This document shows positions 27,026-64,000 of a DNA stretch of 64,000 nt, in pieces; position 1 is the stretch's first letter, and each line of letters opens with the position of its first letter. Origin of the DNA: Flavobacteria bacterium BAL38 (GTDB lineage Bacteria > Bacteroidota > Bacteroidia > Flavobacteriales > Flavobacteriaceae); contig AAXX01000006.1 in assembly GCA_000169355.1 (NCBI GenBank), forward strand, positions 62,001 through 126,000, given 5' to 3'. The translations under genes were made by a program, and so were the position numbers. The notes beneath the pieces are model-generated. The model made no database searches and was not told the origin of the DNA. It saw nothing but the letters and a program-made list of their open reading frames with translations.

Positions 27026-27425
27026 TTTAAGAATTTATTAACAAAAATAAATAAATATCTTAAAAATTGGATAAAAAATTACAGAATTAAGAATAAATTA
27101 ATTTTCAAATTTAGAATTCAAAATAACTTCGTGAAGCTATGTGTAAAAAACTAGGTGCCTATGTGGTATAAACTTCTAATAAAGAAAGTATCACTTATTC
27201 AAGAGATGCTTAACAGCATGACAAACTATGCGTGTAGTCTAATGTTAACTATACTAAGTGAAACGTCCGATACTTCGGACCGAAGCTTCGGACTCTGTGT
27301 AGCTCTCTCAACGCAAACAATATCAAAAAAAACTCGGTGCATCTCTGTGTAACAAACTATATCCCTATGTGTTTAAAAAAATGCAACAAGCTTATCAGCA
27401 TAACAAACCAATAACCTCTTATACC
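27026..27425. repeat. Gene-free gap with a copy of the CTCTGTGTA / CTCGGTGTAAAAC repeat
   Basis: About 27188-27355 holds a full copy of the repeat also found in tandem at 38.9-39.3 kb, including the shared TATCACTTATTCAAGAGATG start, an ACGTCC...CTCTGTGTAGCTCTCTCAACGC middle and AACTCGGTG end. A palindromic insert of about 22 bases made of CGGACCGAAGCTTCGGA lies between ACGTCC and CTCTGTG, as in one tandem copy. I see no gene in this 400-bp stretch. Confidence 0.65.
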
Positions 27426-34363: not shown

Positions 34364-34379
34364 CACACGAGCTGAGAAA

Positions 34380-36557
34380 TTAAAAACCTATCACTTTAAC
34401 AAAAACACCAATTACCTTCAGACTAATAGTCTCCTCATCACGAAGTACAATAGGTGTATAATCCAAAGTTGATTTTGGCAAAAGGGTTATTTCCTCGTGT
34501 CTCCAATTATCTTCAGTAGTTATTTTTTTACTACCATATTCTTTCACAGTGTAATTAGAACCAAAATCAGCATCAATAAAATCGGTCATTTCTACCAGAG
34601 TAATTAAACCATTTCGAGAACCATGGGTATATTTTTCAAAAAGACAAATAGAACCATTAGGTATAATTTTATTCATTGATTCCCCAACTACCTTACAAGC
34701 AAAATAACGTTCCTGATTATGAATGGTATCTTCCAATTCTATATAACGTATATCCTCAACTAATTGAAGTTCAGAAAAAGAACCAGCAGCAATTTCTAAA
34801 TCGTAGAATGGAATCGTTTTTCTATTCGGTTCATCTACAATTTTTAAATTTGGTCTTTCTTCAGTTGTGGTTCTTAAAGCAATGAATTGACTCAAGTATT
34901 TTCTTAGATTATCATTACAAGCATAAATAAAAGTTCCTTTTACACCTCGCAAAAGAATTGTTTTATAGATATTTAAAATATAATCTTTTAAAATTTCAAT
35001 ATCTTTGATAGTGTTTTTACCAGCTTTATCTTTGTACTTACTTTTATCAATTACCAACTTCTTCGTTTCAAAATCATAATCAAGCTCTGGTCCTATAATA
35101 ACACCTGTGTAATTTAAATCGTATCCTTGAGTGGTATGAATACAACCAACTTCATCTATCGATTTTGGTGAATTAACCCAATCTATAGCAACACTATTCC
35201 AACGTAATTTTGTATCTTCAATTACAATATCAAAAGCTGATTTATCTTTATTAGAAATCCATTCCCATGCATAACCTGCAACCATTCTTGATAAGCCATC
35301 TAATTTTTCACGTTTATTAATCTCATCCACCATTTGTTGAAGATCTTCAAACAAATAACATTCGTATTCTAAGGATTGAAACTTATTTGTAGAATCAATC
35401 TTATTATCCAGTAGGTCATGAATTAACTTAACATATTCATTACCACCTCTACATCTAAATTGCGTTTTAAGAGTTTCAATACGTGTCGATGGCGCATTTT
35501 CAAGTGCAACATAGCGAGAACGTAAAACATCAGATGGCTTTATAGATTGAAAACGGTCATAAAAAATGAGTGATTTTTTTGATTGAATTAATAACCAATC
35601 TAATTCAGATGCCGCTGATTCATCTAACCCTAAAGCTTTACAAGTATCATCAAAAGGCTTAAAATAAGGTCCTAAATTAACACGTCTTCGTAAGCGATGT
35701 CCTTCATCAACAATTACTAAATCATACTTGTTTTTTGCCAAATCTGATGGACCTACTACCATTTTTGGTGATAATCCTTGGATATTTTTAAACACTTTAG
35801 ATATAGTTTTTCTAAATGAAGCCATCGGAATAACTAAAGCCATTTCCAACTCACCATATTTGGCTCTAACTGCTTTCAAAAGATTGAATAATTCCAAATC
35901 TTCTTCATCAAAATCAGCAAAGTTAAAATCATCAAGATTTGTCTTAAGTAACTTGAAAAGAAATATTGCTAATATTGATTTACCAGTTCCTGCTCCTCCT
36001 TGAATTAAACTGACATTTGTATTATCATCAAGTAAACATTCTAAAATTAATTTCAAACTCGCAACTTGTTCGGTTGAAAGAGATTTGTAGGGCGAGTATT
36101 TAAATAAATCAGAATTGTCTATATTTTCTAATGAATGGCGTGCAATTCCCATTGCTCTTAATTCATCCCAGATATCAGAAAATAATTCCCAATAAACTTC
36201 TTTTTGCTGATAAAAACGATGATTTGCAATTCCTAGGTTTGCATTTTTAAGATGGTATTGTCCATCAGCATTGATGTAGCGAATAAGATTGGCCTCTACA
36301 TCAAGTGTTGCTGATTTATTGAATAAATCACTCGTAATAAGGTTGACAGCTGTTAAATCTTTTTTGTTTTGTGTTTTTGAATGCGCTTTCATGCGTTTTA
36401 CAACATCAGTTGTTTCACCTACATAAGCATATTTAGTTTGTTGATCATTTAGAAAATACACCAAAGGCCATGAAAGGTAGTCCCGATGATTATCAATAAT
36501 TTCTTTCTCTAAGTTGGAATCAAAATTATAACGTGAAATCGAAAATCTATTTTTCAT
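34380..36557 (-). CDS. GIY-YIG nuclease / DUF2075 helicase / S24 (LexA-UmuD-like) peptidase fusion
   Basis: A 725-residue three-part protein. Residues 30-95 form a GIY-YIG nuclease (VYF at 33-35, YVG at 45-47, Arg55, Glu88). Residues 155-560 form a DUF2075/Schlafen-like helicase with Walker A GGAGTGKS (187-194), Walker B VIVDEGH (281-287) and a TQG motif. Residues 575-725 form an S24 peptidase domain with an AAG cleavage site (Ala591-Gly592), Ser627 in GESMN and Lys672 in YTVKEYG. The 35-residue gap between Gly592 and Ser627 equals that of UmuD (Gly25 to Ser60). So the C-terminal tail could be self-cleaved on RecA filaments, or act only as a fold. It directly abuts the upstream MazG-like gene. 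Defence or damage response is inference. Confidence 0.85.
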   Translation of the reverse strand: MKNRFSISRYNFDSNLEKEIIDNHRDYLSWPLVYFLNDQQTKYAYVGETTDVVKRMKAHSKTQNKKDLTAVNLITSDLFNKSATLDVEANLIRYINADGQYHLKNANLGIANHRFYQQKEVYWELFSDIWDELRAMGIARHSLENIDNSDLFKYSPYKSLSTEQVASLKLILECLLDDNTNVSLIQGGAGTGKSILAIFLFKLLKTNLDDFNFADFDEEDLELFNLLKAVRAKYGELEMALVIPMASFRKTISKVFKNIQGLSPKMVVGPSDLAKNKYDLVIVDEGHRLRRRVNLGPYFKPFDDTCKALGLDESAASELDWLLIQSKKSLIFYDRFQSIKPSDVLRSRYVALENAPSTRIETLKTQFRCRGGNEYVKLIHDLLDNKIDSTNKFQSLEYECYLFEDLQQMVDEINKREKLDGLSRMVAGYAWEWISNKDKSAFDIVIEDTKLRWNSVAIDWVNSPKSIDEVGCIHTTQGYDLNYTGVIIGPELDYDFETKKLVIDKSKYKDKAGKNTIKDIEILKDYILNIYKTILLRGVKGTFIYACNDNLRKYLSQFIALRTTTEERPNLKIVDEPNRKTIPFYDLEIAAGSFSELQLVEDIRYIELEDTIHNQERYFACKVVGESMNKIIPNGSICLFEKYTHGSRNGLITLVEMTDFIDADFGSNYTVKEYGSKKITTEDNWRHEEITLLPKSTLDYTPIVLRDEETISLKVIGVFVKVIGF

Positions 36558-36896
36558 TTATAACTGATCATATTTATCTGATTTACCTTTAGCTTTTTCA
36601 ACTGGATATTTCTCTCCATTTCGCTTAATTTTTTCAGATACAATATCAAATGGATCCAATCCATATTTTTCAGCTAATAAAAAGGAAAAAGACAAAATAT
36701 CCGCCAATTCTTCTTTTATACGGTCAATTTCAACCTTATCAGATTGCTCAGGAGATTTCCATAAGAAAAGTTCATTTAGTTCAGAAGCTTCAATTGAAAT
36801 AGCAACCGCAAGATTTTTAGAATCATGGAATTGTTCCCAATCTCTATCATCTCTAAACTTAATAAGTTCATCAATAACGTTTCTATACTTATCCAT
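36558..36896 (-). CDS. MazG-like nucleotide pyrophosphohydrolase
   Basis: The 112-residue protein is an all-alpha NTP pyrophosphohydrolase of the MazG/RS21-C6 type: ISIEASELNELF gives E-x2-E and EELADILSFSFLLAEKYG gives E-x2-D, the Mg-binding helices. It hydrolyses non-canonical or regulatory nucleotides such as dCTP analogues in relatives. Its stop codon is immediately followed by the ATG of the GIY-YIG helicase, so the two are cotranscribed and translationally coupled. In this context it could remove nucleotides needed by phage or made during the response. That is inference. Confidence 0.88.
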   Translation of the reverse strand: MDKYRNVIDELIKFRDDRDWEQFHDSKNLAVAISIEASELNELFLWKSPEQSDKVEIDRIKEELADILSFSFLLAEKYGLDPFDIVSEKIKRNGEKYPVEKAKGKSDKYDQL

Positions 36897-36912
36897 TTTT
36901 AAAACATTTCTT

Positions 36913-36920
36913 CAAAAATA
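36913..36920 (-). promoter_or_regulatory. Promoter of the MazG - GIY-YIG helicase operon
   Basis: Minus-strand TATTTTTG is a perfect -7 box 16 bases before the ATG. TTG lies 20 bases upstream of it, close to the Bacteroidota -33 spacing. A second TATTTTTG occurs at 36974-36981. No LexA operator can be named because the Bacteroidota consensus is unclear. Confidence 0.5.
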
Positions 36921-37061
36921 ATGAAAAAAAAGTACCTCTGCAACCCATAAAAACAGCTGATTTACAAAACATGCAAAAATACGGAGATACATTTCCTAGC
37001 GAAAGTAAATAAAGGGATTGAGATAAAAATGTGTAAATCCGTACAAGAAGTGTTAAAATAC

Positions 37062-37093
37062 AAAACGCCCCACCATTACTGGCAGGGCGTTTC
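37062..37093 (-). terminator. Terminator after the DUF6266 gene
   Basis: The stem ACGCCC / GGGCGT with neighbouring A and T bases (AAAACGCCC ... GGGCGTTT) lies 33-65 bases downstream of the DUF6266 stop on the minus strand. Confidence 0.6.
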
Positions 37094-37126
37094 CAATCTT
37101 CCTAAAGAACACTAAAAATAGAAAGA

Positions 37127-37768
37127 TTAACCTACAGTCACAGCACCTAAATACAAACTGGTAGCAAACAACTTGTCATCCGTTGAAACAAATGCTGCCC
37201 AAACCTGTACCTCTAGCCCACTTAAAAAGTTAGGCAACGATAAGGTAGCACTTTCGCTACTTCTATCACCAGCGTTCAAACTATACACGGTAGCTTTTGA
37301 GGTGGGTTCGTACACCACTACTACTAATTGGTCAGTAGCTGCAGCCTCCCCTTGCCCACTGTTGTCCGTCCAAGTGAAGTCTAGGTTTTGCCCTGTTCCA
37401 GCGGTTACGGCACCGTTATTAATCCCTAGCAAGTCGCCTTTACTAATTAAGATTTTGGTGTAATCCCACTCGTAGTTAGGATCATTAAACACAATCGCCT
37501 CCTTCATCAAGTACGACATCGCTTGATTGCGTCGCGTTTTCAAACCAGTGTTACTACCAAAATAGCGTTTAATCACAGGTTGAACACCCCCTAGAAATTC
37601 GGTAGTCATGGCAAACTTGCTTCGTTGCTGTTGCTGAAAAGCCGTTGCTAAACGATTACTCTTTTTTGGTAAACTACGCATTACCTCTTTACCTCGCCAT
37701 GTAGCGCCCACCACCGGACCTACTTTTCCCGAAAATGCACCTAAGATGCCTTTATTGTATGTACCCAT
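37127..37768 (-). CDS. DUF6266 family protein
   Basis: A 213-residue protein beginning MGTYNKGILGAFSGKVGPVVGATWRG, the conserved start of DUF6266 proteins of Bacteroidota; a longer reading from 37831 lacks support. The N-terminal half is basic and the C-terminal half is beta-rich, ending in repeated strands. There is no signal peptide. Function is unknown. These genes often occur in several copies per genome. Its base composition (many GC-rich stretches) is higher than that of neighbouring accessory genes. Confidence 0.85.
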   Translation of the reverse strand: MGTYNKGILGAFSGKVGPVVGATWRGKEVMRSLPKKSNRLATAFQQQQRSKFAMTTEFLGGVQPVIKRYFGSNTGLKTRRNQAMSYLMKEAIVFNDPNYEWDYTKILISKGDLLGINNGAVTAGTGQNLDFTWTDNSGQGEAAATDQLVVVVYEPTSKATVYSLNAGDRSSESATLSLPNFLSGLEVQVWAAFVSTDDKLFATSLYLGAVTVG

Positions 37769-38330
37769 ACTCTTTACTAATTTAAAATTGTTACTTATTT
37801 TTTGTTTTTGATGCGCGCTATCAAAGAACATTACAAAGGTATTTTGACCTTCTTAAAAAAGCAAGTGATTTTGAATTAACAAATTGATTTACAATGATTT
37901 GAATGGATTTAAAATGTTTTAAATAGTAATGAAATGGAATAACCTAAAATAACCACACTTGAATGGTTTTGACGGCTTTTGACCGATTTTGACAGCATTT
38001 GATTGGTTCGTACTATTTTTATAGGGGTTTTGTTCGTAATTGGTTCGTATGTTGTTCGTAAGCGCTTCGTAAAGACATAGTTGTATACGACCAATGAAGC
38101 AATAAATACAAAATCAAACTGGGGGAAAAGTGAAAGCGCAAAAATCAAGTTCAAACTTAATACTTGAAACAAAATGCATCCATTAGTTCTCGATACATTT
38201 TGTATTTGTAAATCCGAAGCTTTACAAATACAAAACACTCGAAATGACGAAGGTGGAATTATGAATTTAAAAGAAAAGAAGTAAAAAAAAGGGAAGGAAA
38301 ACCCACGAGAACCTGCTGTAGGTTCAAAGT
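37769..38330. other. Gap with simple repeats and one hairpin repeat
   Basis: 562 bases without a supported gene. From about 37900 to 38065 the sequence is a string of related short TTTTGA-type and TTCGTA-type repeats. A hairpin repeat follows at 38184-38249. Confidence 0.5.
38184..38249 (-). repeat. Hairpin repeat, reverse copy
   Basis: Ends AGTTCTCGATACATTTT and CACTCGAAATGACG with core GTATTTGTAAA / TTTACAAATAC. The core is nearly the same as in the copy at 11653-11716, 26.5 kb away. Confidence 0.75.
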
Positions 38331-38594
38331 TTATAAAAGTTCACTGTTTTGAACTTTTTTCATTAATGACTTAGTAAAGAAACTTTTCGGATACAAAATT
38401 TTACCCCCAAGTTTAGAGAAAGGAATAGTATTTTCTTTGCGATAACGATACAATGTCGAATCACTGATATTAAAAATTCGTTTTACATCGGCAGCATCTA
38501 ACCATACATCATCAACAGCTTGTTGTTGTAATGATAAAATGGTCATTTTTAAATCGTTAATTTCTGTTTTTAAAATTTCAACGTCTGTCTTCAA
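38331..38594 (-). CDS. Excisionase-type helix-turn-helix protein
   Basis: An 87-residue protein with an N-terminal coiled-coil-like helix (about 3-28) and a winged HTH of the HTH_17/MerR-like excisionase family: WLDAADVKRIFNISDSTLYRYRKENTIPFSKLGGKILYPKSFF. Such proteins are frequent in Bacteroidota mobile elements, where they act as excision or regulatory factors. No integrase is present in the window, so this may be a leftover of an element. DNA binding is well supported; the role is not. Confidence 0.85.
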   Translation of the reverse strand: MKTDVEILKTEINDLKMTILSLQQQAVDDVWLDAADVKRIFNISDSTLYRYRKENTIPFSKLGGKILYPKSFFTKSLMKKVQNSELL

Positions 38595-38917
38595 GGGCTT
38601 ATAAATTATGATTCATTTACAAACATCTAAAAAAAAGCTATCTAAACAAAGATAACTTGAAAAAAAGTTCCGCGAAGTTTTTAACAATTAATCGTTGAAT
38701 ATCCATTTGCTAAAGTTGCTTATTTTTAAAATAAAAAAAAGATTGTAAATACAAGATAAACAGAAGTTTACAAGAATAACAGCAACTCTATTTACTTGAT
38801 GCTTAGTTAATGTACACTAAATTTATAGTGTTGGTTTTATGACTATTAATTAAAATTATTGATAACTCAGTTACCAATAAAAAGAAAAAATTAGTTAAAA
38901 ATTGAAACAAAAAAAGC

Positions 38918-39322
38918 AAAACGTCCGAAGTTTCGGTCCGAAGCTTCAGACTCTGTGTATCTCTCTCAACGCAATCCACTAAAAAAAACTCCGTGAAGCT
39001 CGGTGTAAAACATATAAAATTAAGTATCACTTATTCAAGAGATGCTTACCAGCATAACAAACTAGGCGGTTAGGCTTATGTGAACTATGAAAAGTAAAAC
39101 GTCCACTCTGTGTAGCTCTCTCAATACAATCTAATTAAAAAAAACTCGATGAAGCTCGGTGTAAAACATATAAAATTAAGTATCACTTGTCCAAGAGATG
39201 CTTACCAGCATAACAAACTATACATTTAGGCTTAAGTGAACTATGAAAAGTGAAACGTCCACTCTGTGTAACTCTCTCAACGCAATCCACTACAAAAAAA
39301 CTCCGTGAAGCTCGGTGTAAAA
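38918..39322 (+). repeat. Tandem array of CTCTGTGTA / CTCGGTGTAAAAC repeats, about 156-bp period
   Basis: Three copies of ACGTCC (with ACTCTGTGTA) and AACTC-GTGAAGCTCGGTGTAAAAC occur in one orientation, starting near 38920, 39099 and 39255. Each unit includes AAGTATCACTT-TTC/CC-AAGAGATGCTTACCAGCATAACAAACTA. The first copy carries a 22-base palindromic insert (TTTCGGTCCGAAGCTTC) also present at 27.2 kb. The 1,002-bp gap 38595-39596 contains nothing else except a terminator and a possible tRNA remnant. Confidence 0.75.
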
Positions 39323-39354
39323 CTATTTTGGCTATGTGTTTTAAAAAAAAAAGC

Positions 39355-39389
39355 ATAAAAAAAACCGATTCATTTCTGAACCGGTTTTA
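39355..39389 (-). terminator. Terminator on the minus strand next to a possible tRNA remnant
   Basis: AAAACCGATTCA / TGAACCGGTTTT forms a stem with a short loop; a long A-run to its left (39341-39364) is the minus-strand T-tract. It would end a minus-strand RNA coming from 39390 or beyond. Confidence 0.55.
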
Positions 39390-39390
39390 G

Positions 39391-39420
39391 CCTGCGGAGA
39401 AAGAGGTTCTCGAACTCTTT
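39391..39420 (-). other. Possible tRNA 3'-end remnant / attachment site
   Basis: On the minus strand the bases read like the T-arm and acceptor end of a tRNA: AAGAGTTCGAGAACCTCTT then TCTCCGCA, with the terminator directly after. The T-loop has nine bases instead of seven and no complete tRNA lies upstream, so it is at most a remnant, as left by integration at a tRNA 3' end. Confidence 0.3.
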
Positions 39421-40054: not shown

Positions 40055-40387
40055 CTAATACATCAAATGCATTTTCTCTTTATTTCTCCAACCCGCTTGA
40101 TTTTCATACTCAACAAAATAGATTTTAATATCAGCTTGATTAGGATAATCTACAAAATAGATTTTCTTTTTTGCTTGATTAGGATACTGCGTAAAAAACC
40201 ATTTTCCGTTATTCTCTCCAGCTTGGTTTTCATACTTTACTTTGTATACTTTTAAATCGGCTTGGTTTTCGTATTGTACAACATAAACCTTAACATCAGC
40301 CTGATTAGCATACTGAGCACTAAAGACTTTTTGGGCACTTACCTGTGACGCAAAAAACAAAACGAAAAAACAAGCTATGTATTTCAT
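40055..40387 (-). CDS. DUF6150 repeat protein with signal peptide
   Basis: The 110-residue secreted protein has a signal peptide (MKYIACFFVLFFASQVSAQ) followed by six repeats around a Y-x-NQA core (YANQAD, YENQAD, YENQAG, YPNQAK, YPNQAD, YENQAG), each about 13 residues with alternating hydrophobic strands. This is the DUF6150 pattern. It probably folds as a regular beta-structure with the Asn-Gln-Ala turns aligned. The start at 40387 is preferred to 40417 because the signal peptide begins there. The role is unknown. Confidence 0.8.
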   Translation of the reverse strand: MKYIACFFVLFFASQVSAQKVFSAQYANQADVKVYVVQYENQADLKVYKVKYENQAGENNGKWFFTQYPNQAKKKIYFVDYPNQADIKIYFVEYENQAGWRNKEKMHLMY

Positions 40388-41281
40388 ATATAATATTTTA
40401 TTACTAATATAATACAATTTATTATATATAATAAACGTTATTAAATATAATATTTCTTATGATAAATAATAATTTACATGATTTGGTAGCTTTAAAAAAA
40501 TGTAACACAATCTAAATTAATTTAGATTGATTCAGATTTTATCTAATCACAATTTATAATAATTTATTTTATAAATAAATTTAAGGTCGGAAAGATGGTG
40601 TAATAGCCAAGAATGAGAACTAAATTTATTAGCAATATAGAATATTTGGTGAAAAAAATGTTCCTTCCATTAGAATTCGGACATTGCGCTTACTTGCTAT
40701 TAGCAAACGTTACATCTTTTTCCTAATTAGGTTTGAGTAATTCTCAAAGTAATAAAGTATCGATGTTGTTGAATTTTCTATTTTATATTTTTTTTCATCC
40801 TTAAAAGCTCTGAAAAAATACCCCTTGGATCTTACTTTATCAATTTGAATTGCATCCCAAAACTCTATGAAAGCTTGTTTATATGCGCAACCTTTAAGTC
40901 TATTTTCAAAAATACTATTATAACAAATATAATTTACCGTTTATATATATGTTATAAAATATAATATTTTTCATAATTTTTAATTATTTGTTTATTTTTT
41001 TTGCTAATATTTTGTGTTGTTTTTTAAATTTTAGATTAAATATTTAACAATAATTAATACAAAAAATGTTAAATATTCACATAATTCTTATATATTTTAA
41101 TGTTTTAACAACATAAATTTAAAATAAGTATGTTTTTCATCGATTTTTAACTTGACAAAACACATATAGTATAGAGCATTGCGTTATAAATAAATTATTT
41201 AAAAAGTGTAACAAAACATTTTTGTAAATGTATAAGTATAAAAGCAACGTTATCTTACAAACTAATCAATCAACTTAAAAA
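40388..41281. other. Long AT-rich gap with a possible gene remnant
   Basis: Almost 900 bases of AT-rich sequence between a minus-strand and a plus-strand gene. The only coding-like stretch is a minus-strand open frame without a good start (40710-40940). No hairpin terminator or tRNA was found. Confidence 0.5.
40710..40940 (-). pseudogene. Possible remnant of a coding gene, start missing
   Basis: A 76-codon open stretch between two in-frame stops has no ATG at its 5' end, but its sequence (including FIEFWDAIQIDKVR and ILYYFENYSNLI) looks like real protein and not random AT-rich translation. I do not recognise the family. It is likely the 3' end of a decayed gene. Confidence 0.3.
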
Positions 41282-50127: not shown

Positions 50128-51207
50128 TTATGCCAATTGAAATATCATTTTATAGTGATACTTAAACTTAAGAACAATAGGATCATCATGACCGCGAACT
50201 TGAGCAATAAAATTTATATAGCCTTCTAAACGATTCAAAAAATAAGTTTCACTAGTATTTCTAATTTCATTTTTACTTTTAAAATGATTTTTAGCAGCTT
50301 TTGAAATACCTTTTTGTAAGGTATCATGCAACATAGCACGAACCATTTTAATGATTTTTCTATCTACATTTACTTTCTCATTAACCACAAGCCCCGTAAC
50401 AGTTTGTTTTCGATTGTTGGATTTTAATCTTGTTTTCTTAACATTCAATTCAAACTGATTTTGTTCAATTATTTCTTTCAATTCAGTATATTGAGCTTTT
50501 GAAATGGATTGATTAGATGAAAAGGTTAAATCATCGGCATAACGAGAATAACGTATCTCATTTTTCATACAATATGCCGATAAAGCGCTATCTAATTCCA
50601 AACAAATAAAGTTGGAAATAACTGGTGATGTTGGAGAGCCTATAGGAAGCTTTCCTTCATAGGTAACCAATAAAGTTAAAGCAGTAGCAATTTGTTCATT
50701 AAATCTAAAATAATCGGATAAAAATAATTCTTTTACACGATAAGCTTTTATAGAAGGAAAAAAATCCTTCAAATCAACATTAAGTACATATTTTTGTTGA
50801 ACATGTATTTTAGCATTCTCAAAAATATTGCATACTTTTTCTTTTTTATTAGGGTTGATTACAAACCCATGAACCCCTTCAGGACGAACCAAATGATAAT
50901 AATTTTGTAAATAAAAATTCAATCTCGATTGAATGTACATTAATTGAGATTCTGGAGTTTGTATCAAGCGATTGCCTCCTCTTTTCTTGGGTATTTGAAA
51001 AGTTTCGTATTGTGGATGGTTAATTAAATTTTCAATATCAAAAAGTCTAGTTTTAAATAACAAACTTAAATCAGCAATTTTAACAACAGAAAGTAATTTT
51101 GATACAAAAAAAGTTTGATCAAATCGAAAATCAATAGCTTCAAAAGGTCCATAATAGTAACTATTATATTCTTCTAATCTAGCGTGTATTTTATTTATTA
51201 ATATCAT
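50128..51207 (-). CDS. Retron-type reverse transcriptase (intact)
   Basis: The 359-residue enzyme has the features that mark retron RTs: NAKIH (131-135, the NAxxH motif), DLKDFFPS, YADD (223-226) and VTG (270-272) in GLVVNEKVNV. It should copy the adjacent ncRNA into multicopy single-stranded DNA covalently linked to RNA. A 153-base ncRNA candidate with 10-bp a1/a2 arms lies just upstream (51220-51372). It is the second RT of the operon; the first at 54557 is split. All catalytic motifs are intact. Confidence 0.93.
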   Translation of the reverse strand: MILINKIHARLEEYNSYYYGPFEAIDFRFDQTFFVSKLLSVVKIADLSLLFKTRLFDIENLINHPQYETFQIPKKRGGNRLIQTPESQLMYIQSRLNFYLQNYYHLVRPEGVHGFVINPNKKEKVCNIFENAKIHVQQKYVLNVDLKDFFPSIKAYRVKELFLSDYFRFNEQIATALTLLVTYEGKLPIGSPTSPVISNFICLELDSALSAYCMKNEIRYSRYADDLTFSSNQSISKAQYTELKEIIEQNQFELNVKKTRLKSNNRKQTVTGLVVNEKVNVDRKIIKMVRAMLHDTLQKGISKAAKNHFKSKNEIRNTSETYFLNRLEGYINFIAQVRGHDDPIVLKFKYHYKMIFQLA

Positions 51208-54556: not shown

Positions 54557-55884
54557 CTATTTTTTATAATGGGTCATTGCTTCATCAAGTCCAACATCAA
54601 ATATCAAATCTAAAATATTAACTGCTTCAGAATTGTTTTTAGATGTTGTTCCAAGTAACAAATCAAACCGCTTCTTTAGTTTTAAATAAGTTCCATCATC
54701 CGCCCCTTTCACCATTTTCAAATATAATAATTTGCCCTCAATAACCATAGCCATGTTAGGTTGTTCTGACTTTACATGACCTTTATCAGCCAAATAAATA
54801 TTTAGAAAAATAGCATAAGACTTGTCATATCCATAACGTTCCCACAAATACAACCATTGACGTAACTGCTTTACATAACGGCGGGTTACATTAATTTTAT
54901 CAGTAACAACTAAACCCGTCACTTCCTGACGATATCCTCTCTTTTGTAAGCGAACTTTACTTTCTTTAATATGGAAATTTTGTTCGATAATTATTTTACG
55001 AACTTCACAATCAAAGGTAGTTCCTGAAGCGAATATTTTTTCAACTTTTGTAGGGCTAACTTCATACGTATTATGCTTGCTACTAAACGTAATATCATCT
55101 GCATAACGCGAATAATTTAAACCAAATCGCTTTGCAACACCACTTAATCGCTTATCTATCTTTTCACAAATAATATTAGTCAAAGTGGGCGAAGTAGGTG
55201 CCCCTTGCGGCAAAACTGAAGTTATAACTTTTATCCAATTACTCTCTTTAAATCGTTCCACTTCCATAGGAGTACAACAAAGAGTAGCTATAAAATTGGC
55301 TATATTTTTTCTTTCAACTGTTGTACCAAGATTAAAGGGTGCTACTAGCAATCTACCCCAAACACGTGAACGATCTACACTTGGAAAAAATCTTTTAAAT
55401 CTATATTGTAAACATAAGTTTGTCCAATATGTTTCTTAGCATTATCTACAATTGATTTTCCTATTACAAATCCTGTAGCAGCAGTATGCGGTTCATGTAA
55501 ACATTGTAAAATAATATTTAATGCTTTTTGAAACTCTTTTAATCCTTTTATAGGTGCATGTATCGTTCTATCTTGACCAGATTTTTTTTTAATTATAAAA
55601 GGTACGTAACAATCTTTTCTGTTGATGTTCTTTTTTTCTATAACTACATTTTTTTCTATAAAAGGTTCAAACTTTGATAAATCAATTCTAAAATCCACTC
55701 TTGATTTTATAACTTGACTATCTTTAGTAATAAAATAATTCAATTGCTTTTCTGAAAAAGGAACTGTTTTATCACCATAAATCATTTGTTTGGCTATATT
55801 TAGTAACTCTAAAAAATCAGATTTTGACTGCATTTCTTTAAATGCGGTTTGTACTTGAAATTTAAATTCTGGAGTTAGTATCAT
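54557..55884 (-). pseudogene. Second retron-type reverse transcriptase, split by a 1-base homopolymer change
   Basis: Two frames together make one RT. The first (55884 to 55375, 169 residues) has NAKKH (148-152) and stops in IDLKDFFQV. The second (to 54557) continues PSVDRSRVWGR, YADD and VTGLVVTDKINV. Adding one T to the run of six at 55385-55390 joins them into a 442-residue protein with DFFPS restored, exactly as in the neighbouring RT. It may be a real frameshift, slippage-controlled expression or a sequencing error. All catalytic motifs are intact across the join. Confidence 0.85.
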
Positions 55885-56356: not shown

Positions 56357-57373
56357 ATGGCTGTAACAAAAAATCCTCTAATTCGCTATAAAATTTTAGA
56401 TGCTTGTTTTAGAAATCCTTATAAAAAATATACCAAAGAACTATTACTAGAAACCTTAAATGAAAAGTTGATGGAATTATTTGATGATGAATCCCACTGC
56501 ATCAAATTACGACAAATGCAAGACGATATTGCCTTTATGAAAAGTGCTGAAGGGTGGAGCATTGAATTAGCAGAAGAATTTGATGGTAAAAAAAGAATTT
56601 TCCGTTATGAAGACCTCAACTTTTCCATTAACAACGCAACATTAAATGAAATTGAGATAAGTGAATTCCAATCGGCTATTCATGTATTATCACAATTTGA
56701 AGGCATGCCCCAATTTGAAGGAATACAAGAAATCATTGCAAAATTAAAATACGATTTAAAAGCAGATAATAACAAGCAACCTTTTATAGGTTTTGATACT
56801 AATCAAGATTTAAAGGGTATTGAATATTTCAGTCAGTTATACAATGCTACACAAAATCAAGAACCAATTCAGATTACTTACAAAGATTTTAAAGCAGAAC
56901 AACCTTATACGTTTACACTACATCCCTACTATTTAAAACAATACAACAACCGTTGGTTCCTTTTTGGACTTCATGAAGAAACCATGAAACCTGATTGGAA
57001 TGTAGCCATTGATCGTATCGTGTCTATTGAAACAAGTAATGTAAAATTCATCCCAAACACAACAATTGATTGGCAAGATTATTTTTCAGATATGATTGGG
57101 GTAAGTAAACCCATTGATGGCAAATTAGAAGAAATTGTTTTACATTTCAATCAATTGACAGGTAAATACATGGAAAACAAACCTATACACGAAACTCAAA
57201 AACACAAATGGCTAAATGAAGAAACATTAGAAATCAAAATCAAAGTAATTCCTAATTATGAATTAGAACGTTTGATTTTGAGTTATGGAGATAGTGTAAA
57301 AGTAATGGAGCCTAAGGATTTAAGGCAAAGAATAAAGAACAGAGTTGAAAATAATGTTAAATTATATGGATAA
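56357..57373 (+). CDS. WYL-domain transcriptional regulator
   Basis: A 338-residue regulator with a winged-helix N-terminus (about 8-75) and a WYL domain (about 165-240: EPIQITYKDF, LHPYYLKQYNNRWFLFG, DRIVSIE). The C-terminal WCX-like segment with ELERLILSYGDSVKVMEPKDLRQRI follows. WYL proteins of this layout (BrxR, CapW type) repress defence operons and respond to nucleic-acid ligands. It is transcribed divergently from the retron operon, sharing a compact promoter region, so it probably controls both. It overlaps the convergent DprA-like gene by 12 bases at their 3' ends. Confidence 0.9.
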   Translation: MAVTKNPLIRYKILDACFRNPYKKYTKELLLETLNEKLMELFDDESHCIKLRQMQDDIAFMKSAEGWSIELAEEFDGKKRIFRYEDLNFSINNATLNEIEISEFQSAIHVLSQFEGMPQFEGIQEIIAKLKYDLKADNNKQPFIGFDTNQDLKGIEYFSQLYNATQNQEPIQITYKDFKAEQPYTFTLHPYYLKQYNNRWFLFGLHEETMKPDWNVAIDRIVSIETSNVKFIPNTTIDWQDYFSDMIGVSKPIDGKLEEIVLHFNQLTGKYMENKPIHETQKHKWLNEETLEIKIKVIPNYELERLILSYGDSVKVMEPKDLRQRIKNRVENNVKLYG

Positions 57374-58297
57374 TGAATCTTCAAATGCCTTATAATCTTC
57401 ATTTCCAGCAATCGAAATAATTTCTCTTGTCTTAATTAATTCTTTTGATTTAATATCACACATCTTTTGCAGACCTTCTTTTAATTCAGTTAACAAGAGT
57501 CTATTTCCGCTAAATTCATCTGAATTATTATATTCAGAATTAGTTTTAAAATCTATGATACCTATAGGTCTATTTAACTCCGAGAATGTTTTGAGGGTAT
57601 ACTTTGAGCCCCCATTACTACTACTCTGAATAAGAATTAAACCTCTTGACAAACCAGCTTGAATTCTACTCGCCTTGCTGCCTGAAAATTGGTCTTCTTT
57701 TTTATTTGGTTCATTTTCAGAAAGCAAAAGTCCGTTTCTATCTAAAACTTTTTTTGCCAATTCTTTTGTGATTTTTGAAGATGTTTTTTCAAAATTTAAT
57801 CCACCAGAGATTACTCCGATTACATTAGAAAAAACCTCATCTGAATTTGTAATACTATGTTTATCTATCCCTTCCACAAGTCCATTACAAATTGCCCAGT
57901 GCTCTGAAAAATATTGACCTACTTTTTTGGCAATTTTATTACCTAATTCTGTAGACTTTCTTGTCCCTATAACAGCTATTGATTTGTGAAGCAATTCTAT
58001 ATTTCCTTTTGCATATAAAACAGGTGGTGGATCTTTAATCTCTAATAAAAGTTTTGGATAATCTGCATCTAAATAGGAAATAATTTTTATACCATTAGCA
58101 TTACATTCACTAATGATATCTCTAGCTTTTAGAATATTTACCTGTAAATCCTTTTCATCAATTTTATTACTTAAACTTAAAAGCATTTCTAAATTATCTC
58201 TGTAAAGACTTATTAAATGTGAATGCTGTTTCATAAAGGAAGCTCCAATTCCTTTAATATTAGCTAATGCAATTATGTTTTCAATATATTTTTCCAT
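57362..58297 (-). CDS. DprA/Smf-like protein in the restriction operon
   Basis: The 311-residue protein has a helical N-terminus and the DprA Rossmann-like core: DPPPVLYAKGN, SIAVIGTRKSTELG, GLVEGIDKHSI, VISGGLN and SENEP. Housekeeping DprA loads RecA onto incoming ssDNA. I start it at 58297, where the ATG shares one base with the stop of the HAD-PRTase gene (TAATG); a longer reading from 58342 lies inside that gene. The usual Tyr-Pro in the GGLD-x2-YP motif is not kept. Position at the end of a type I restriction operon suggests a defence-specific paralogue. Confidence 0.85.
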   Translation of the reverse strand: MEKYIENIIALANIKGIGASFMKQHSHLISLYRDNLEMLLSLSNKIDEKDLQVNILKARDIISECNANGIKIISYLDADYPKLLLEIKDPPPVLYAKGNIELLHKSIAVIGTRKSTELGNKIAKKVGQYFSEHWAICNGLVEGIDKHSITNSDEVFSNVIGVISGGLNFEKTSSKITKELAKKVLDRNGLLLSENEPNKKEDQFSGSKASRIQAGLSRGLILIQSSSNGGSKYTLKTFSELNRPIGIIDFKTNSEYNNSDEFSGNRLLLTELKEGLQKMCDIKSKELIKTREIISIAGNEDYKAFEDSLSI

Positions 58298-59553
58298 TAA
58301 CTTATGCGTATTGATAAACCACAACCAGTATTGTAAGGACAATTATAAAATTTAACGCCATCTTCTTTACGAATACTAATTCTCATATTAGAATTACATC
58401 TCGGACAGGTTTTAGAGTGTATGGGTAAAATTAAATAAAATAAAGCAATGAATAAAATGTTTTTAACTCCTTTACTTCTTAACTGAGTTGCAATTTCATA
58501 AGCAGTTGCTGAAGATGTAAATTGATCATCTATTATAATTATAGATTTACCTTCTAAATCAACAGTATCTAAAGTAAATAAATATTTATTAATAAAAGTT
58601 CTTCTAGAGGTATAATCAGGTCTATTTCTTAAAGAACCCTCAACATCATCACGCCATTCAAACAACTTTACTTTGGGTATTGAGCTTTCTACCAAATCAA
58701 AAATCTCTTTCATTTTATTTGGTGGTGTTGTTGTCTTCTTGTCCGACACATAAGTTAAATAATCCCAGCTAAATTGCTTTTGATTTTCTACAACATTAAA
58801 ATAATTATTAATTCCAGTAGCAAGGGTTTTTAAAAAATCAAAACTCCTATTTGGATTATCTATTTGATAATATTTATCTGCTCTTGAATATTTATCGCAT
58901 TCACCATCTTCTTGTCGTGCTAAACATCTAAAAGCAGTAAAACCATTTTGATATTTAATATATTTAAAAGGAACAGCCTTAATTGAATTTTTTTTCTGAA
59001 AAGCACTTTCAATGGCTAACAAATTTTCAAGCGGATTGGCTACAATAGTATTAATATCATCATACGATTTTGCATAATAGGTAGGTCCCATTTTTAAGGG
59101 TTTCCAACTTTGACCTATACCATCCCTTTCTTCTATTACTGATGCAATATAAAATTCTGTAAAAATGGTTCTAATATTTAATCTTCTGCCTAACTCAATA
59201 TCTAGAAAACTATCACCAATAAAGATAAAATTATCCCGGTCTATGTAAAGTTCTCTTAAAATTATATTTGCATTTATATAGTCTAAAGTCCTTTCTGTGT
59301 TAGGTTTATCAGCTAAAAAAACAAAATCACATTGAAAAAGTTCTGTTGCTATTTTTTGAACATATTTAGGATGTGAATCAGAAACAATAATAATTTTATT
59401 TCCTAGAGATTTTTGATGATTTATAAATTCAACAGCACCTTTAAATACTGGTATCGATGCAATAACAGTATCCTCAACACCATCTTTCATCCCTTTAAAT
59501 TGAGGATGCGCAGTATTCGTTAATGTGCCGTCTAAGTCAATTAAAAGTACCAT
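58297..59553 (-). CDS. HAD hydrolase - phosphoribosyltransferase - zinc-finger fusion
   Basis: A 418-residue protein in three parts: a HAD phosphatase-like domain (1-170) with DLDGT (6-10) and GDSFLDIE; a phosphoribosyltransferase domain (190-375) with the PRPP-binding loop IIIDDQFTSSATA (339-351); and a C-terminal four-cysteine zinc ribbon (Cys383, Cys386, Cys405, Cys411). The PRTase plus zinc finger recalls ComFC, a competence protein, and the next gene is DprA-like, also a competence protein. It begins 3 bases after the hsdR stop. The joint presence points to ssDNA handling or nucleotide signalling linked to restriction. This is inference. Confidence 0.85.
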   Translation of the reverse strand: MVLLIDLDGTLTNTAHPQFKGMKDGVEDTVIASIPVFKGAVEFINHQKSLGNKIIIVSDSHPKYVQKIATELFQCDFVFLADKPNTERTLDYINANIILRELYIDRDNFIFIGDSFLDIELGRRLNIRTIFTEFYIASVIEERDGIGQSWKPLKMGPTYYAKSYDDINTIVANPLENLLAIESAFQKKNSIKAVPFKYIKYQNGFTAFRCLARQEDGECDKYSRADKYYQIDNPNRSFDFLKTLATGINNYFNVVENQKQFSWDYLTYVSDKKTTTPPNKMKEIFDLVESSIPKVKLFEWRDDVEGSLRNRPDYTSRRTFINKYLFTLDTVDLEGKSIIIIDDQFTSSATAYEIATQLRSKGVKNILFIALFYLILPIHSKTCPRCNSNMRISIRKEDGVKFYNCPYNTGCGLSIRIS

Positions 59554-62535: not shown

Positions 62536-62567
62536 AGTTTTCTATTATGTTATTGAAAAAGCAATTT

Positions 62568-63035
62568 CTATTCTAATTTCGATAACAACTCTTTAATTTC
62601 TGCTTTCTTTGTTTGAATCTCTTTATAAATTTTTATTTGTTCTTCAAGATTAGCTTTTTCAGTTTTGAGCTCTTCAATAGAAATCTCTATAGCTGTTTTT
62701 TCTTTTTCTTGAGATTCAACAGAAAGTGCCTCAAGTTGACTTTGGCTCATAGAACTATATTTGTTTAAAACATCTAAAACAAGTTGTGGTTTAGTTATGC
62801 TGTTTTTTTCAAACAACACAGCTCCATTATATGATAACTTTAAAACTTTATATCTTCTTGGGCTATAATAGTCTTTCCATGAAACTGAAATATTAGTATT
62901 GATTAACAAATAATCATTACTCCAAGTGCTACCATCTGGGGCTACTAAAATACAATTTAATGGAGGGTTATTCCCTTCATAATATACTGCTTCAAATTTA
63001 TTTTCATTAATTACAATGCCTGCTTTTTTTTCCAT
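62568..63035 (-). CDS. Small coiled-coil protein between hsdS and hsdR
   Basis: A 155-residue protein with a beta-rich N-terminal half (about 1-90, including NPPLNCILVAPDGSTWSNDY and SPRRYKVLKLSYNGAV) and a coiled-coil C-terminal half (about 108-155, rich in Glu and Lys). It starts 2 bases after the hsdS stop and precedes hsdR by 32 bases, so it belongs to the operon. I do not recognise a named family with certainty. It may be a modulator or an anti-restriction switch. That is speculation from position. Confidence 0.6.
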   Translation of the reverse strand: MEKKAGIVINENKFEAVYYEGNNPPLNCILVAPDGSTWSNDYLLINTNISVSWKDYYSPRRYKVLKLSYNGAVLFEKNSITKPQLVLDVLNKYSSMSQSQLEALSVESQEKEKTAIEISIEELKTEKANLEEQIKIYKEIQTKKAEIKELLSKLE

Positions 63036-63037
63036 AA

Positions 63038-64000
63038 CTAATTATTTTTTTTTATTTGCCACTCTCTAACATCTATCTTACCCGTAACCGCTTCTGAAAT
63101 TAAGGATTGACGGTAGGTTTGAAGTTTTTCGATTTGAGATAATATTTTTGATGAAATAATATCTATAATTTTACAATTTTCATCAATATAATTTAATATC
63201 TCTTTTTGAATTTCTAATTTTGGGGTAATTATAATTAACTCTTTTACAATAGAAGAATTTAAACCAGCCATAATAGAACCAACAGAATTTAGTGCTAATT
63301 GTTGAAATACATAATCACTTTGTTCTAAAAGAATTGAAAATAATCTTCCATCAAATAAATCTTCATTAAATCTCAACCTTAATAAATGGGAATCTAAAAT
63401 ACCTTTTTCATATGATGAATTAAATACTTTTGATTTACCTGTTGTACCCATCATAGTTATTAAAATATCACCATCAAGTATTTCATATTGTTTAAAATCT
63501 TTCTCGAATCTTTCAGGATCTATATATCTATGTCCTAATGTAAAATCGTCTTTAATAACATTTCCTTGACCATAAATTTTAATTCCATTGTCTGTTAAAG
63601 TATCTAATTTTAATGCACTCCCAAAAGGACCAATTTTAATTCCGTTTTCTGAACTTAAAAGGTATTTAACTTTTTTAACCTCCCAATTCTCTGGAATTTC
63701 TCCCAACCATTCTAAACCACTATCTTTCATAGGGGCGTTTGGGTTTAAGCCTTTAGTAACCGCTTCGTTAATAACGGCTTGGCGTTTTTCTTTGAGTAAT
63801 TCAATTAAACGCTTTTTCTTTTCAATAGTAGCATCGATTAGATTGGTTTTGTAATCAAGATAGTCCGCGATTTTTATTTGTTCTTCCAAAGAAGGATTTA
63901 ATAAATATAAATTTTTAACATCACTATCATTTATACCCGCCTGAGCACCTCCTGTTTGATGTGTTAATATTTGAGATCTCATATTTAAAAACATATAGTA
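63038..64000 (-). CDS. hsdS: Type I restriction specificity subunit HsdS, 5' part beyond the window
   Basis: The frame stays open to base 64000 (two codons beyond the first visible ATG at 63994), so only the C-terminal 320 or so residues are seen. They contain the end of the first target recognition domain (LTHQTGGAQAGINDSDVKNL), a first conserved helix region (KRLIELLKEKRQAVINEAV), the second recognition domain (GLEWLGEIPENWEVKK onward) and the second conserved helix (LQTYRQSLISEAVTGKIDV). It decides which DNA sequence is methylated and cut. Confidence 0.93.
   Translation of the reverse strand, partial: YYMFLNMRSQILTHQTGGAQAGINDSDVKNLYLLNPSLEEQIKIADYLDYKTNLIDATIEKKKRLIELLKEKRQAVINEAVTKGLNPNAPMKDSGLEWLGEIPENWEVKKVKYLLSSENGIKIGPFGSALKLDTLTDNGIKIYGQGNVIKDDFTLGHRYIDPERFEKDFKQYEILDGDILITMMGTTGKSKVFNSSYEKGILDSHLLRLRFNEDLFDGRLFSILLEQSDYVFQQLALNSVGSIMAGLNSSIVKELIIITPKLEIQKEILNYIDENCKIIDIISSKILSQIEKLQTYRQSLISEAVTGKIDVREWQIKKNN

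What the first reader, a model, noticed from the sequence alone, without database searches (positions are those of the whole stretch)
34380..36896. GIY-YIG / helicase / LexA-like self-cleaving fusion with a coupled MazG pyrophosphohydrolase
One 725-residue protein joins a GIY-YIG nuclease, a Schlafen/DUF2075-type helicase and an S24 domain whose AAG site, Ser627 and Lys672 lie where LexA and UmuD have them (Gly-to-Ser distance equal to UmuD). The S24 part would let RecA-ssDNA filaments trigger cleavage, turning DNA damage or phage attack into activation or release of the nuclease-helicase. The MazG gene is joined stop to start. I know of no characterised system with this set.
Basis: partly seen in the sequence, partly recalled or inferred. 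Interest (0 to 1): 0.82.

Follow-up and report, generated by a model that had tools for sequence, protein, structure and literature searches.

The report
Restriction-type nuclease with LexA-like tail
A bacterial defence-type DNA-cutting enzyme carries at its end a small self-cutting domain of the kind that senses DNA damage, and its gene is paired with one for an enzyme that probably removes altered DNA building blocks; the same tail sits on several unrelated classes of restriction enzyme, which suggests a shared, untested way of switching such enzymes off or on when DNA is damaged.

Summary
A 725-aa protein (GIY-YIG nuclease, PF09848/DUF2075 helicase, C-terminal S24 domain) is encoded stop-to-start behind a MazG-like gene.

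The tail is a distinct S24 subfamily: in 198 genomes 9 hits at E<=1.3e-62, the next at 6.9e-5. It also occurs on DUF3427 (SauUSI-like, type IV) enzymes, type I HsdR and a type III Res protein, so it looks like a portable module of ATP-dependent restriction enzymes. Its model matches RecA-bound LexA (Z about 14).

MazG is dCTPP1-like. Tailed DUF3427 enzymes instead have an upstream NUDIX whose nearest solved relative acts on 5-Me-CTP.

Best reading: a restriction enzyme with a modified-dCTP sanitiser and a RecA-triggered self-cleaving "fuse". Cleavage, RecA dependence, direction and all enzyme activities are inferred.

The parts
36558..36896 (-). MazG-like (dCTPP1-like) nucleoside triphosphate pyrophosphohydrolase, 112 aa, first gene of the pair
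   Evidence: PF12643 65.8 bits; mammalian dCTPP1 at E 1.3e-14 and 4qgp at 4.2e-17 in the PDB; E36, E39, E63, D66 (EXXE/EXXD) invariant in 23 of 23 aligned
34380..36557 (-). GIY-YIG / DUF2075 helicase / S24 fusion protein, 725 aa, starts directly after the MazG stop codon
   Evidence: 13 full-length relatives in genome contigs
36228..36488 (-). GIY-YIG nuclease domain, about residues 24-110
   Evidence: PF01541 at 32-67; PADLOC PDC-S14 match over 24-110; Y34, Y45, G47, R55, H59, E88, N105 in 28 of 28
34917..36014 (-). SLFN-g3 / DUF2075 helicase domain, residues 182-547
   Evidence: PF09848 202.5 bits; Walker A K193 28 of 28, Walker B D284 and E285 27 of 27 with letters
34383..34850 (-). S24 (LexA-like) self-cleaving-type tail, residues 570-725
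   Evidence: PF00717; subfamily profile; AlphaFold2 model pLDDT 79.9, LexA 1jhe Z 14.4, rmsd 2.3 over 121 residues
34782..34787 (-). predicted scissile bond Ala591-Gly592
   Evidence: Ala 33 of 33 and Gly 32 of 33 tails that have this region; the exception, L156, has Thr
34677..34679 (-). predicted nucleophile Ser627
   Evidence: 34 of 34 tails
34542..34544 (-). predicted general base Lys672
   Evidence: 34 of 34 tails
34377..37043 (.). block shared with Flavobacterium sp. LMO8 (L032) at 92.6% DNA identity: both genes and about 150 bases upstream; downstream flanks unrelated, upstream only short repeat-like similarity
   Evidence: blastn of the window against L032; L033 shares 34366-36901 at 83.9% and nothing else of the window

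Best explanation
The pair is a restriction-type, probably anti-phage cassette made of three functional parts. (1) The GIY-YIG / DUF2075 protein is an ATP-driven DNA translocase-nuclease that attacks invading DNA, most likely DNA with altered (C5-modified) cytosine, so it works like a type IV enzyme such as SauUSI. (2) The dCTPP1-like MazG hydrolyses C5-modified dCTPs, keeping them out of host DNA, which would otherwise become a target, or starving a phage that uses them. (3) The S24 tail is a fuse. While intact, the enzyme works. When ssDNA accumulates, RecA filaments bind the tail and it cuts itself at Ala591-Gly592, separating residues 1-591 (ending in -Ile-Ala-Ala) from the last 134 residues, and the nuclease-helicase is switched off or cleared. 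It would be a built-in form of restriction alleviation. Shown here: anatomy, conservation of catalytic residues, fold match, linkage, and reuse of the tail on type I, III and IV enzymes. Inferred: all enzymatic activities, RecA dependence, direction of the switch, substrate of MazG. My step-wise estimates: self-cleavage competent 0.85; RecA-triggered 0.7; shut-off rather than activation 0.5 to 0.3; restriction/defence role 0.8; MazG acts on C5-modified dCTP 0.55.
For: Tail: Ser and Lys 34 of 34, Gly 32 of 33. The subfamily stands apart: in 198 genomes 9 hits at E<=1.3e-62 and one more at 6.9e-5, the own genome's other S24 protein not among them. In 395 genomes 18 hits at E<=1e-14, none on a complete stand-alone protein: 10 DUF2075-type (one broken by an in-frame stop), 5 DUF3427, 2 HsdR-like, 1 contig-end fragment (classes). 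Type I operon hsdM-hsdS-AAA-HNH-HsdR+S24 in L047 (hsdS by eye). Type III Mod followed by Res+S24 in L156. Fold: LexA 1jhe Z 14.4 and RecA-bound LexA 8trg Z 14.0, model residues 12-156 and 10-156, which include the cleavage site. The genome has RecA and only one other S24 at E<=0.001, by eye a UmuD overlapping a UmuC. Modified-cytosine logic: DUF3427 partners are related to SauUSI, which cuts 5mC/5hmC DNA (passages of PMC3874153). The NUDIX upstream of DUF3427-S24 (5 of 5: L045, L046, L048, L064, L090) has, for the L046 copy, 3gwy as best PDB match (E 1.6e-39), and the substrate found for that enzyme in a 74-compound screen was 5-Me-CTP (PMC5158307). dCTPP1 and E. coli Orf135 are given as 5-methyl-dCTP hydrolases (PMC10742078). 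A NUDIX is fused to a DUF2075 helicase in L110. An S24-less GIY-YIG-DUF2075 gene in Paenibacillus follows a MrcB_N gene. Two MazG relatives outside DUF2075 operons overlap HNH_2 genes (L178, L181). RdrA- and RdrB-like genes follow the L059 copy directly; an RdrB-like gene lies downstream of the L056 copy with two genes between.
Against: No activity is shown by any search. No modified-base reader domain was recognised in the 725-aa protein; SauUSI has DUF3427 for this, ours does not. The NUDIX partner also matches MutT-type proteins, some better than CTP pyrophosphohydrolase 2rrk (5x1x 1.8e-22, 7syc 3.6e-13 and 1mut 1.7e-11 against 1.4e-10), so a role against oxidised nucleotides is open; the 3gwy substrate is a ribonucleotide. 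The tail is optional: 23 of 28 DUF2075 proteins lack it, and L014, same genus as the window, has none. MazG is also found with tail-less helicases, so tail and MazG need not act together. L156 has Thr at the scissile Gly position. The -AA end left after cleavage resembles the LexA fragment (recalled), but AAG is simply the S24 site, so it is no independent support for degradation. The immediate neighbours in the window are not known defence genes, and several relatives (for example L032, L035, L057) have housekeeping-like neighbours by eye. Direction rests on analogy.
Confidence: 0.4

Rival explanations
1. Activation: the tail holds the nuclease-helicase inactive, and RecA-triggered self-cleavage releases an active enzyme upon phage attack or DNA damage.
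For: UmuD is activated by cleavage (recalled). Proteolytically activated nuclease proenzymes exist in Hachiman and AVAST (abstract and passages of PMC12799240).
Against: Tail-less relatives exist for GIY-YIG-DUF2075 (L014), DUF3427 (L142, L143) and HsdR (window 59557-62535), so no gate is needed in general. A type I or III enzyme that waits for RecA filaments would act late on incoming DNA.
Confidence: 0.25
2. Schlafen-like abortive system: the GIY-YIG domain cuts RNA or tRNA and MazG lowers NTP pools, so that infected cells stop growing.
For: PF09848 is named Schlafen group 3 helicase; [quoted passage not shown]
Against: The same tail is on DNA restriction enzymes of types I, III and IV; MazG is dCTPP1-like; PD-(D/E)XK-like N-termini (by eye, ELKQW motif) replace GIY-YIG in sister proteins that mostly keep the MazG (5 of 6).
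Confidence: 0.12
3. The S24 tail is catalytically competent but is used mainly as a dock, for RecA filaments, for dimerisation or for DNA ends, and is not cleaved under physiological conditions.
For: S24 domains also dimerise (recalled); the scissile Gly is Thr in L156 although Ser and Lys are kept.
Against: Ser and Lys are kept across four enzyme classes and the A-G bond in three of them, which docking alone would not need.
Confidence: 0.12
4. A DNA repair or nucleotide-pool housekeeping pair rather than defence.
For: RecA link by fold, house-cleaning partner, helicase-nuclease architecture.
Against: Sparse presence: 25 of 395 phylum genomes have any match, several to the tail or helicase alone. 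The same two genes lie in different surroundings in close relatives. RADAR-like or restriction genes near some relatives.
Confidence: 0.08

Closest known systems
SauUSI (type IV, PLD nuclease-helicase-DUF3427)
   Same: Single-chain nuclease plus ATP-dependent helicase; its tailed DUF3427 relatives carry the same S24 subfamily and an upstream pyrophosphohydrolase
   Different: The domains given for SauUSI in PMC3874153 (PLDc, P-loop NTPase, DUF3427) include no S24; our protein has GIY-YIG and SLFN-g3 helicase, no DUF3427; modification dependence untested
LexA / lambda CI / UmuD (S24 self-cleaving, RecA-stimulated)
   Same: Fold, scissile Ala-Gly, Ser-Lys dyad
   Different: Attached to the C-terminus of a nuclease-helicase; S-to-K spacing 45; forms its own subfamily; RecA response untested
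Restriction alleviation of type I enzymes by ClpXP
   Same: Damage-coupled proteolytic suppression of a restriction helicase-nuclease (PMC12707154 section 25)
   Different: There an external protease acts on HsdR; here a built-in self-cleaving tail is proposed
dCTPP1 / RS21-C6 and the NUDIX CTP pyrophosphohydrolases (3gwy, 2rrk)
   Same: MazG partner matches dCTPP1; the parallel NUDIX matches 3gwy best and 2rrk more weakly
   Different: Here co-operonic with a restriction-type helicase; MutT-type proteins also match the NUDIX
Nuclease-protease pairs of Hachiman and AVAST
   Same: Proteolysis used to control an immune nuclease, recurrently acquired by unrelated systems
   Different: Trypsin-like protease acting on a separate proenzyme (abstract and passages of PMC12799240); the terms S24, LexA and MazG do not occur in that main text

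Membership tests
S24 self-cleaving (LexA/UmuD) superfamily | Ser-Lys dyad and scissile Ala/Cys-Gly in register | tested here: met
   Ser 34 of 34, Lys 34 of 34, Gly 32 of 33; PF00717 over its cut-off
S24 self-cleaving (LexA/UmuD) superfamily | LexA-type fold including the cleavage region | tested here: met
   1jhe Z 14.4, rmsd 2.3 over 121 residues, model 12-156; the cleavage loop itself is of low confidence in the full-length model (residues 588-601)
S24 self-cleaving (LexA/UmuD) superfamily | RecA-stimulated self-cleavage | not testable with these tools
   needs biochemistry
SLFN-g3 / DUF2075 helicases | PF09848 over the cut-off with helicase motifs | tested here: met
   202.5 bits against 24; Walker A and B kept
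GIY-YIG nucleases | GIY-YIG core with catalytic Tyr, Arg, Glu and Asn | tested here: met
   24.3 bits against 22.6; residues in 28 of 28
MazG-like / dCTPP1 all-alpha NTP pyrophosphohydrolases | EXXE...EXXD metal motif and homology to dCTPP1 | tested here: met
MazG-like / dCTPP1 all-alpha NTP pyrophosphohydrolases | hydrolysis of C5-modified dCTP | not testable with these tools
   inferred from relatives only
Type IV (modification-dependent) restriction enzymes | cleavage of modified, not unmodified, DNA | not testable with these tools
   no assay
Type IV restriction enzymes of the SauUSI kind | DUF3427 recognition domain | tested here: not met
   no PF11907 match in the 725-aa protein at E<=1 and none at E<=1e-15 in the own genome
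Known defence systems in PADLOC-DB 2.0.0 | full-length match to a defence model | tested here: not met
   only partial matches, best PDC-S14 3e-9 over residues 24-110; MazG none at E<=1

The most novel reading that the evidence does not exclude
A LexA-type tail is a general, portable regulatory cassette of ATP-dependent restriction enzymes (type I HsdR, type III Res, type IV SauUSI-like and DUF2075 enzymes): a RecA-operated self-cleaving fuse that couples restriction directly to DNA damage. In two of these classes it is laid over an older pairing of the enzyme with a C5-modified-dCTP sanitiser (MazG/dCTPP1 or NUDIX).
Probability: 0.4. Interest if true: 0.88.

Novelty: new variant of a known kind. 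Interest (0 to 1): 0.74.

Why it matters
Restriction enzymes endanger their own host, above all after DNA damage. A RecA-reading self-cleaving tail, reused on four enzyme classes, would be a direct molecular link between the SOS signal and restriction, an intrinsic counterpart to ClpXP-dependent restriction alleviation. The coupled dCTPP1-like or NUDIX enzymes give a testable answer to how a cell with an enzyme against modified cytosine keeps modified nucleotides, also those salvaged from digested phage DNA, out of its own chromosome.

Tried and rejected
Viral relatives of the whole protein: 15 pattern matches, none a relative (such a scan reaches close relatives only). PDB relatives by sequence of the 725-aa protein: none at E<=1. 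The tail profile against PDB sequences gives one weak LexA match, E 0.082; the fold search was needed. Plasmids: the tail in 1 record only at E<=1e-5, Halomonas.

"MazG always with DUF2075" is rejected: 9 of 28 have it directly upstream (L105 begins near a contig end, so little of its upstream side was visible); the PD-(D/E)XK-type locus L026 lacks it (5 of 6 of that type have it; my first checkpoint note says "every" and is wrong there). In a tenth genome (G172) MazG lies upstream with one gene between. Of four more distant records (L065-L068) only L068 has it. "NUDIX always with DUF3427" is rejected: of 21 matches 17 were checked and 11 have it, 6 of 6 in the strong SauUSI-like group; the 6 without are divergent.

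Origin of the tail from the UmuD of the same genome is not supported: that UmuD is a very long branch in the tail tree. Whether L014 lost the tail or never had it is unsettled: it falls beside tailed L013/L015 in a midpoint-rooted tree. My first wording that the flanks of the L032 copy are unrelated was too strong: downstream there is no similarity, but upstream short repeat-like stretches match. A NUDIX motif pattern flagged nothing; the NUDIX genes were noticed by eye and then confirmed by Pfam for two (L045, L143) and by similarity for the others.

In print: the paper searches listed no paper on this fusion or on S24-tailed restriction enzymes; I saw 25 of 80 titles, 15 of 23, 15 of 159 and 30 of 56, and the library lacks most subscription journals. 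DUF2075 occurs in 5 papers (listing only). DefensePredictor (PMC13092281, one passage) names MazG among uncharacterised predicted defence domains, so MazG in defence is not new in general.

Papers seen: passages of PMC13092281, PMC3874153, PMC7159879, PMC5158307, PMC10742078, PMC8281217, PMC12707154 (also section 25), PMC5415555 (no LexA in it) and PMC12799240; abstract and outline of PMC3855555; listings only of the rest. Recalled, not from calls: LexA/UmuD residue spacings, LexA fragment degradation, UmuD activation by cleavage, S24 dimerisation.

Dropped rows: A1 (17 tails) became A4 (19) without the Halomonas tail and with three more; A2 (23) became A5 (22) without L066. Counts use all tails again.
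Full report
What is there. The window lies in a genome of 2.8 Mb in 14 contigs; the nearest named relative of the pair is in Flavobacterium sp. LMO8 (95% protein identity). On the minus strand a MazG-like gene (36558-36896) is followed without a gap by a 725-codon gene (34380-36557). Pfam places GIY-YIG at 32-67, SLFN-g3/DUF2075 helicase at 182-547 and S24 at 583-659. The GIY-YIG and S24 scores are just above the curated cut-offs, but seven GIY-YIG core residues are the same in 28 of 28 proteins, including two from Bacillota and one from a faecal "Bacteriophage sp." record, and Walker A and B residues are kept.

The pair. Against L032 the main DNA similarity spans 34377-37043, both genes plus about 150 bases upstream. 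Downstream there is no similarity (GH16-like gene by eye in the window, a different gene in L032). Upstream, L032 continues directly into a stretch that matches window 39346-39415, so the window has about 2.3 kb between (37044-39345), and repeat-like stretches at window 38951-39345 and 27119-27371 match L032 4751-5137. L033 shares 34366-36901 and nothing else of the window; L043 shares 34401-36863. So the two genes travel together between different surroundings. In the GIY-YIG group a MazG ORF lies directly upstream in 25 of 25 loci (the window and 24 relatives), including a tail-less member (L014), one broken by an in-frame TAG (L009) and one truncated (L016). In six sister proteins whose first 250 residues are a different, PD-(D/E)XK-like domain (by eye), MazG is upstream in 5 of 6. 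Of four more distant records, MazG is upstream in one (L068) and not in L065, L066 or L067. A wider draw gives the limits: of 28 PF09848 proteins at E<=1e-30 in 198 genomes, 9 have MazG directly upstream and 5 carry the tail; all 5 are GIY-YIG proteins with MazG. In the other direction, of 16 MazG matches at E<=1e-15 in 15 of 198 genomes, 10 are directly beside DUF2075 genes (one a remnant), 1 is in such an operon with one gene between, 2 overlap HNH_2 nuclease genes, 1 lies near an SRAP gene, and 2 are doubtful matches with a stop inside.

The tail is a portable module. A protein search in 395 phylum genomes already hit C-termini of much longer proteins. Pfam identified these as DUF3427 proteins (L017, L019) and T1R_D3 type I proteins (L027, L028). 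A profile of 17 tails found 18 tails at E<=1e-14 in the same 395 genomes: 10 DUF2075-type (one broken), 5 DUF3427, 2 HsdR-type and one fragment at a contig end. A second profile run down to E 1e-4 in 198 genomes gave 9 tails at E<=1.3e-62 and then a single 147-aa protein at 6.9e-5; the own genome's UmuD-like protein did not reach 1e-4. So the tails form a subfamily well apart from the other S24 proteins of these genomes. In viral contigs the tail is on an HsdR (L155) and on a type III Res protein that follows its Mod methyltransferase (L156); such contigs may hold host DNA. In L047 the tailed HsdR ends an operon hsdM, hsdS (by eye), AAA ATPase, HNH gene, hsdR. A Halomonas plasmid record has the tail in a second frame behind a PD-(D/E)XK-like DUF2075 protein, without MazG. 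The tail is thus on enzymes of type I, III and IV kind and on DUF2075 enzymes, with a second phylum in the case of Halomonas.

Is it a working S24 domain? Over 34 aligned tails Ser627 and Lys672 are invariant, Ala591 is in 33 of 33 and Gly592 in 32 of 33 that hold this region; L156 has Thr for Gly. AlphaFold2 on 19 tails gives mean pLDDT 79.9 and pTM 0.78. Foldseek's first two matches are LexA and lambda repressor in complex with RecA filaments (E 1.1e-4 and 9.7e-4); VIA-align gives LexA 1jhe Z 14.4 (rmsd 2.3, 121 residues), full-length LexA on RecA 8trg Z 14.0, lambda repressor 8gmu 13.8 and UmuD' Z 10.1 (97 residues). The full-length model (pLDDT 76.2, pTM 0.58) leaves the placing of the domains open, and its linker 564-570 and cleavage loop 588-601 are of low confidence. 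The host has RecA and only one other S24 protein at E<=0.001, by eye a UmuD that overlaps UmuC, so a RecA-UmuD partnership is likely present while no LexA was found.

The partner enzyme. MazG matches a pyrophosphatase (4qgp, E 4.2e-17) and mammalian dCTPP1 (E 1.3e-14). The tailed DUF3427 enzymes have a NUDIX gene overlapping upstream in 5 of 5 (L045, L046, L048, L064, L090). For the L046 copy the best PDB match is B. fragilis 3gwy (E 1.6e-39); MutT-type proteins follow (5x1x 1.8e-22) and CTP pyrophosphohydrolase 2rrk is at 1.4e-10. The substrate found for 3gwy in a 74-compound screen was 5-Me-CTP (PMC5158307 passages). Orf135/NudG and dCTPP1 are given as 5-methyl-dCTP hydrolases (PMC5158307 and PMC10742078 passages), and a mycobacterial MazG removes 5-OH-dCTP (PMC3855555 abstract). 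SauUSI, the model DUF3427 enzyme, cuts 5mC and 5hmC DNA (PMC3874153 passages). One DUF2075 helicase (L110) has a NUDIX domain fused to its N-terminus. Two pyrophosphohydrolase folds paired with two helicase classes, both with relatives that act on C5-modified cytosine nucleotides, point to a shared logic: an enzyme against modified cytosine needs a clean dCTP pool, or attacks the phage's modified dCTP. For our protein this is inference; no reader domain was recognised, and the NUDIX could also serve against oxidised nucleotides.

Mechanism. Tail-less relatives exist for the DUF2075, DUF3427 and HsdR classes (type III was not examined), so the tail is an added control. Because it sits on enzymes with different ways of recognising DNA, the common feature it is likely to serve is the danger that an ATP-driven nuclease poses to a damaged host. 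In type IA and IB systems ClpXP degrades HsdR during damage repair (PMC12707154 section 25). A self-cleaving tail that reads RecA filaments would do the same without an external protease, and as breaks made by the enzyme lead to RecA filaments, it would also act as negative feedback. I prefer this fuse to activation (about 0.5 to 0.3), but nothing here decides it.

Defence context. Nine proteins near relatives were chosen by eye for PADLOC, so this is no survey. RdrA- and RdrB-like genes follow the L059 copy, an RdrB-like gene lies two genes beyond the L056 copy, a HEC-06 gene is beside L063, a Ppl-like gene near L060, a PDC-S60 gene near L050, a REase_I gene near L036 and a type IV REase match beside L066; the TPR protein of L053 had only weak matches. 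Other relatives (L032, L035, L057) have housekeeping-like neighbours by eye. In the window the immediate neighbours are not known defence genes, but 50-62.5 kb holds retron-type RTs, a ShosA-like gene and type I HsdR.

Verdict. Each domain is known; the combination and its reuse were found in none of the listings of the paper searches, so I call it a new variant of a known kind.

Noticed in passing
window 50128-51207 and 54557-55884: Two reverse transcriptase genes with best PADLOC matches to retron classes XI, I-C and XII; the second is split into two ORFs (54557-55351 and 55375-55884).
   Followed up: partly
window 57362-59553: ShosA-like DprA gene next to a HAD/phosphoribosyltransferase gene, resembling a ShosTA pair (the second partner was not scanned with PADLOC).
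   Followed up: partly
window 59557-63994: Type I HsdR of 992 aa without an S24 tail, with an HsdS-like gene (by eye) behind it: a tail-less control in the same genome.
   Followed up: no
window 37044-39415: Relative to L032 about 2.3 kb (37044-39345, with small ORFs 37127-37831 and 38331-38594) lies between the shared block and the next matching stretch; repeat-like DNA at 38951-39345 and 27119-27371 also matches DNA upstream of the L032 copy. It could mark how the cassette or its neighbours moved.
   Followed up: partly
L034 3492-5393, L040 3401-5377, L042 3692-5668, L044 3701-5674, L053 9664-11628 (-), L182 1010-3016: A gene of about 630-670 aa directly upstream of MazG, TPR-containing by Pfam in L034, L044 and L053 (the others by eye), forms a three-gene operon in some loci. 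L035 and L042 share flanks but only L042 has it, so it is optional.
   Followed up: partly
L034 5395-5697, also L038 and L040: The MazG gene carries an extra N-terminal segment of about 100 aa, no Pfam match in L034, only seen where the TPR-type gene is also upstream.
   Followed up: partly
L182 3372-4463: A 363-aa protein without a Pfam match sits between MazG and a DUF2075 helicase in one operon; unexplained.
   Followed up: no
L185 3324-6619: MazG-like gene overlapping an HNH_2 nuclease gene, near a C5-cytosine methylase (Pfam run on the same genes in L181).
   Followed up: partly
L110 1405-3777 (-): NUDIX domain fused to the N-terminus of a DUF2075 helicase.
   Followed up: yes
L047 4069-6022 and L155 80-1896: AAA ATPase plus small HNH gene (Septu/PtuAB-like by eye; Pfam for L047 only) inside or next to type I operons, upstream of the S24-tailed HsdR.
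   Followed up: partly
L055 8796-10982: In this same-genus relative the fusion gene is interrupted by an in-frame TAG; the S24 part still has Ser, Lys and the Gly.
   Followed up: partly
window 40055-40417 (-): Small ORF with repeated YENQADLKVY-like motifs.
   Followed up: no
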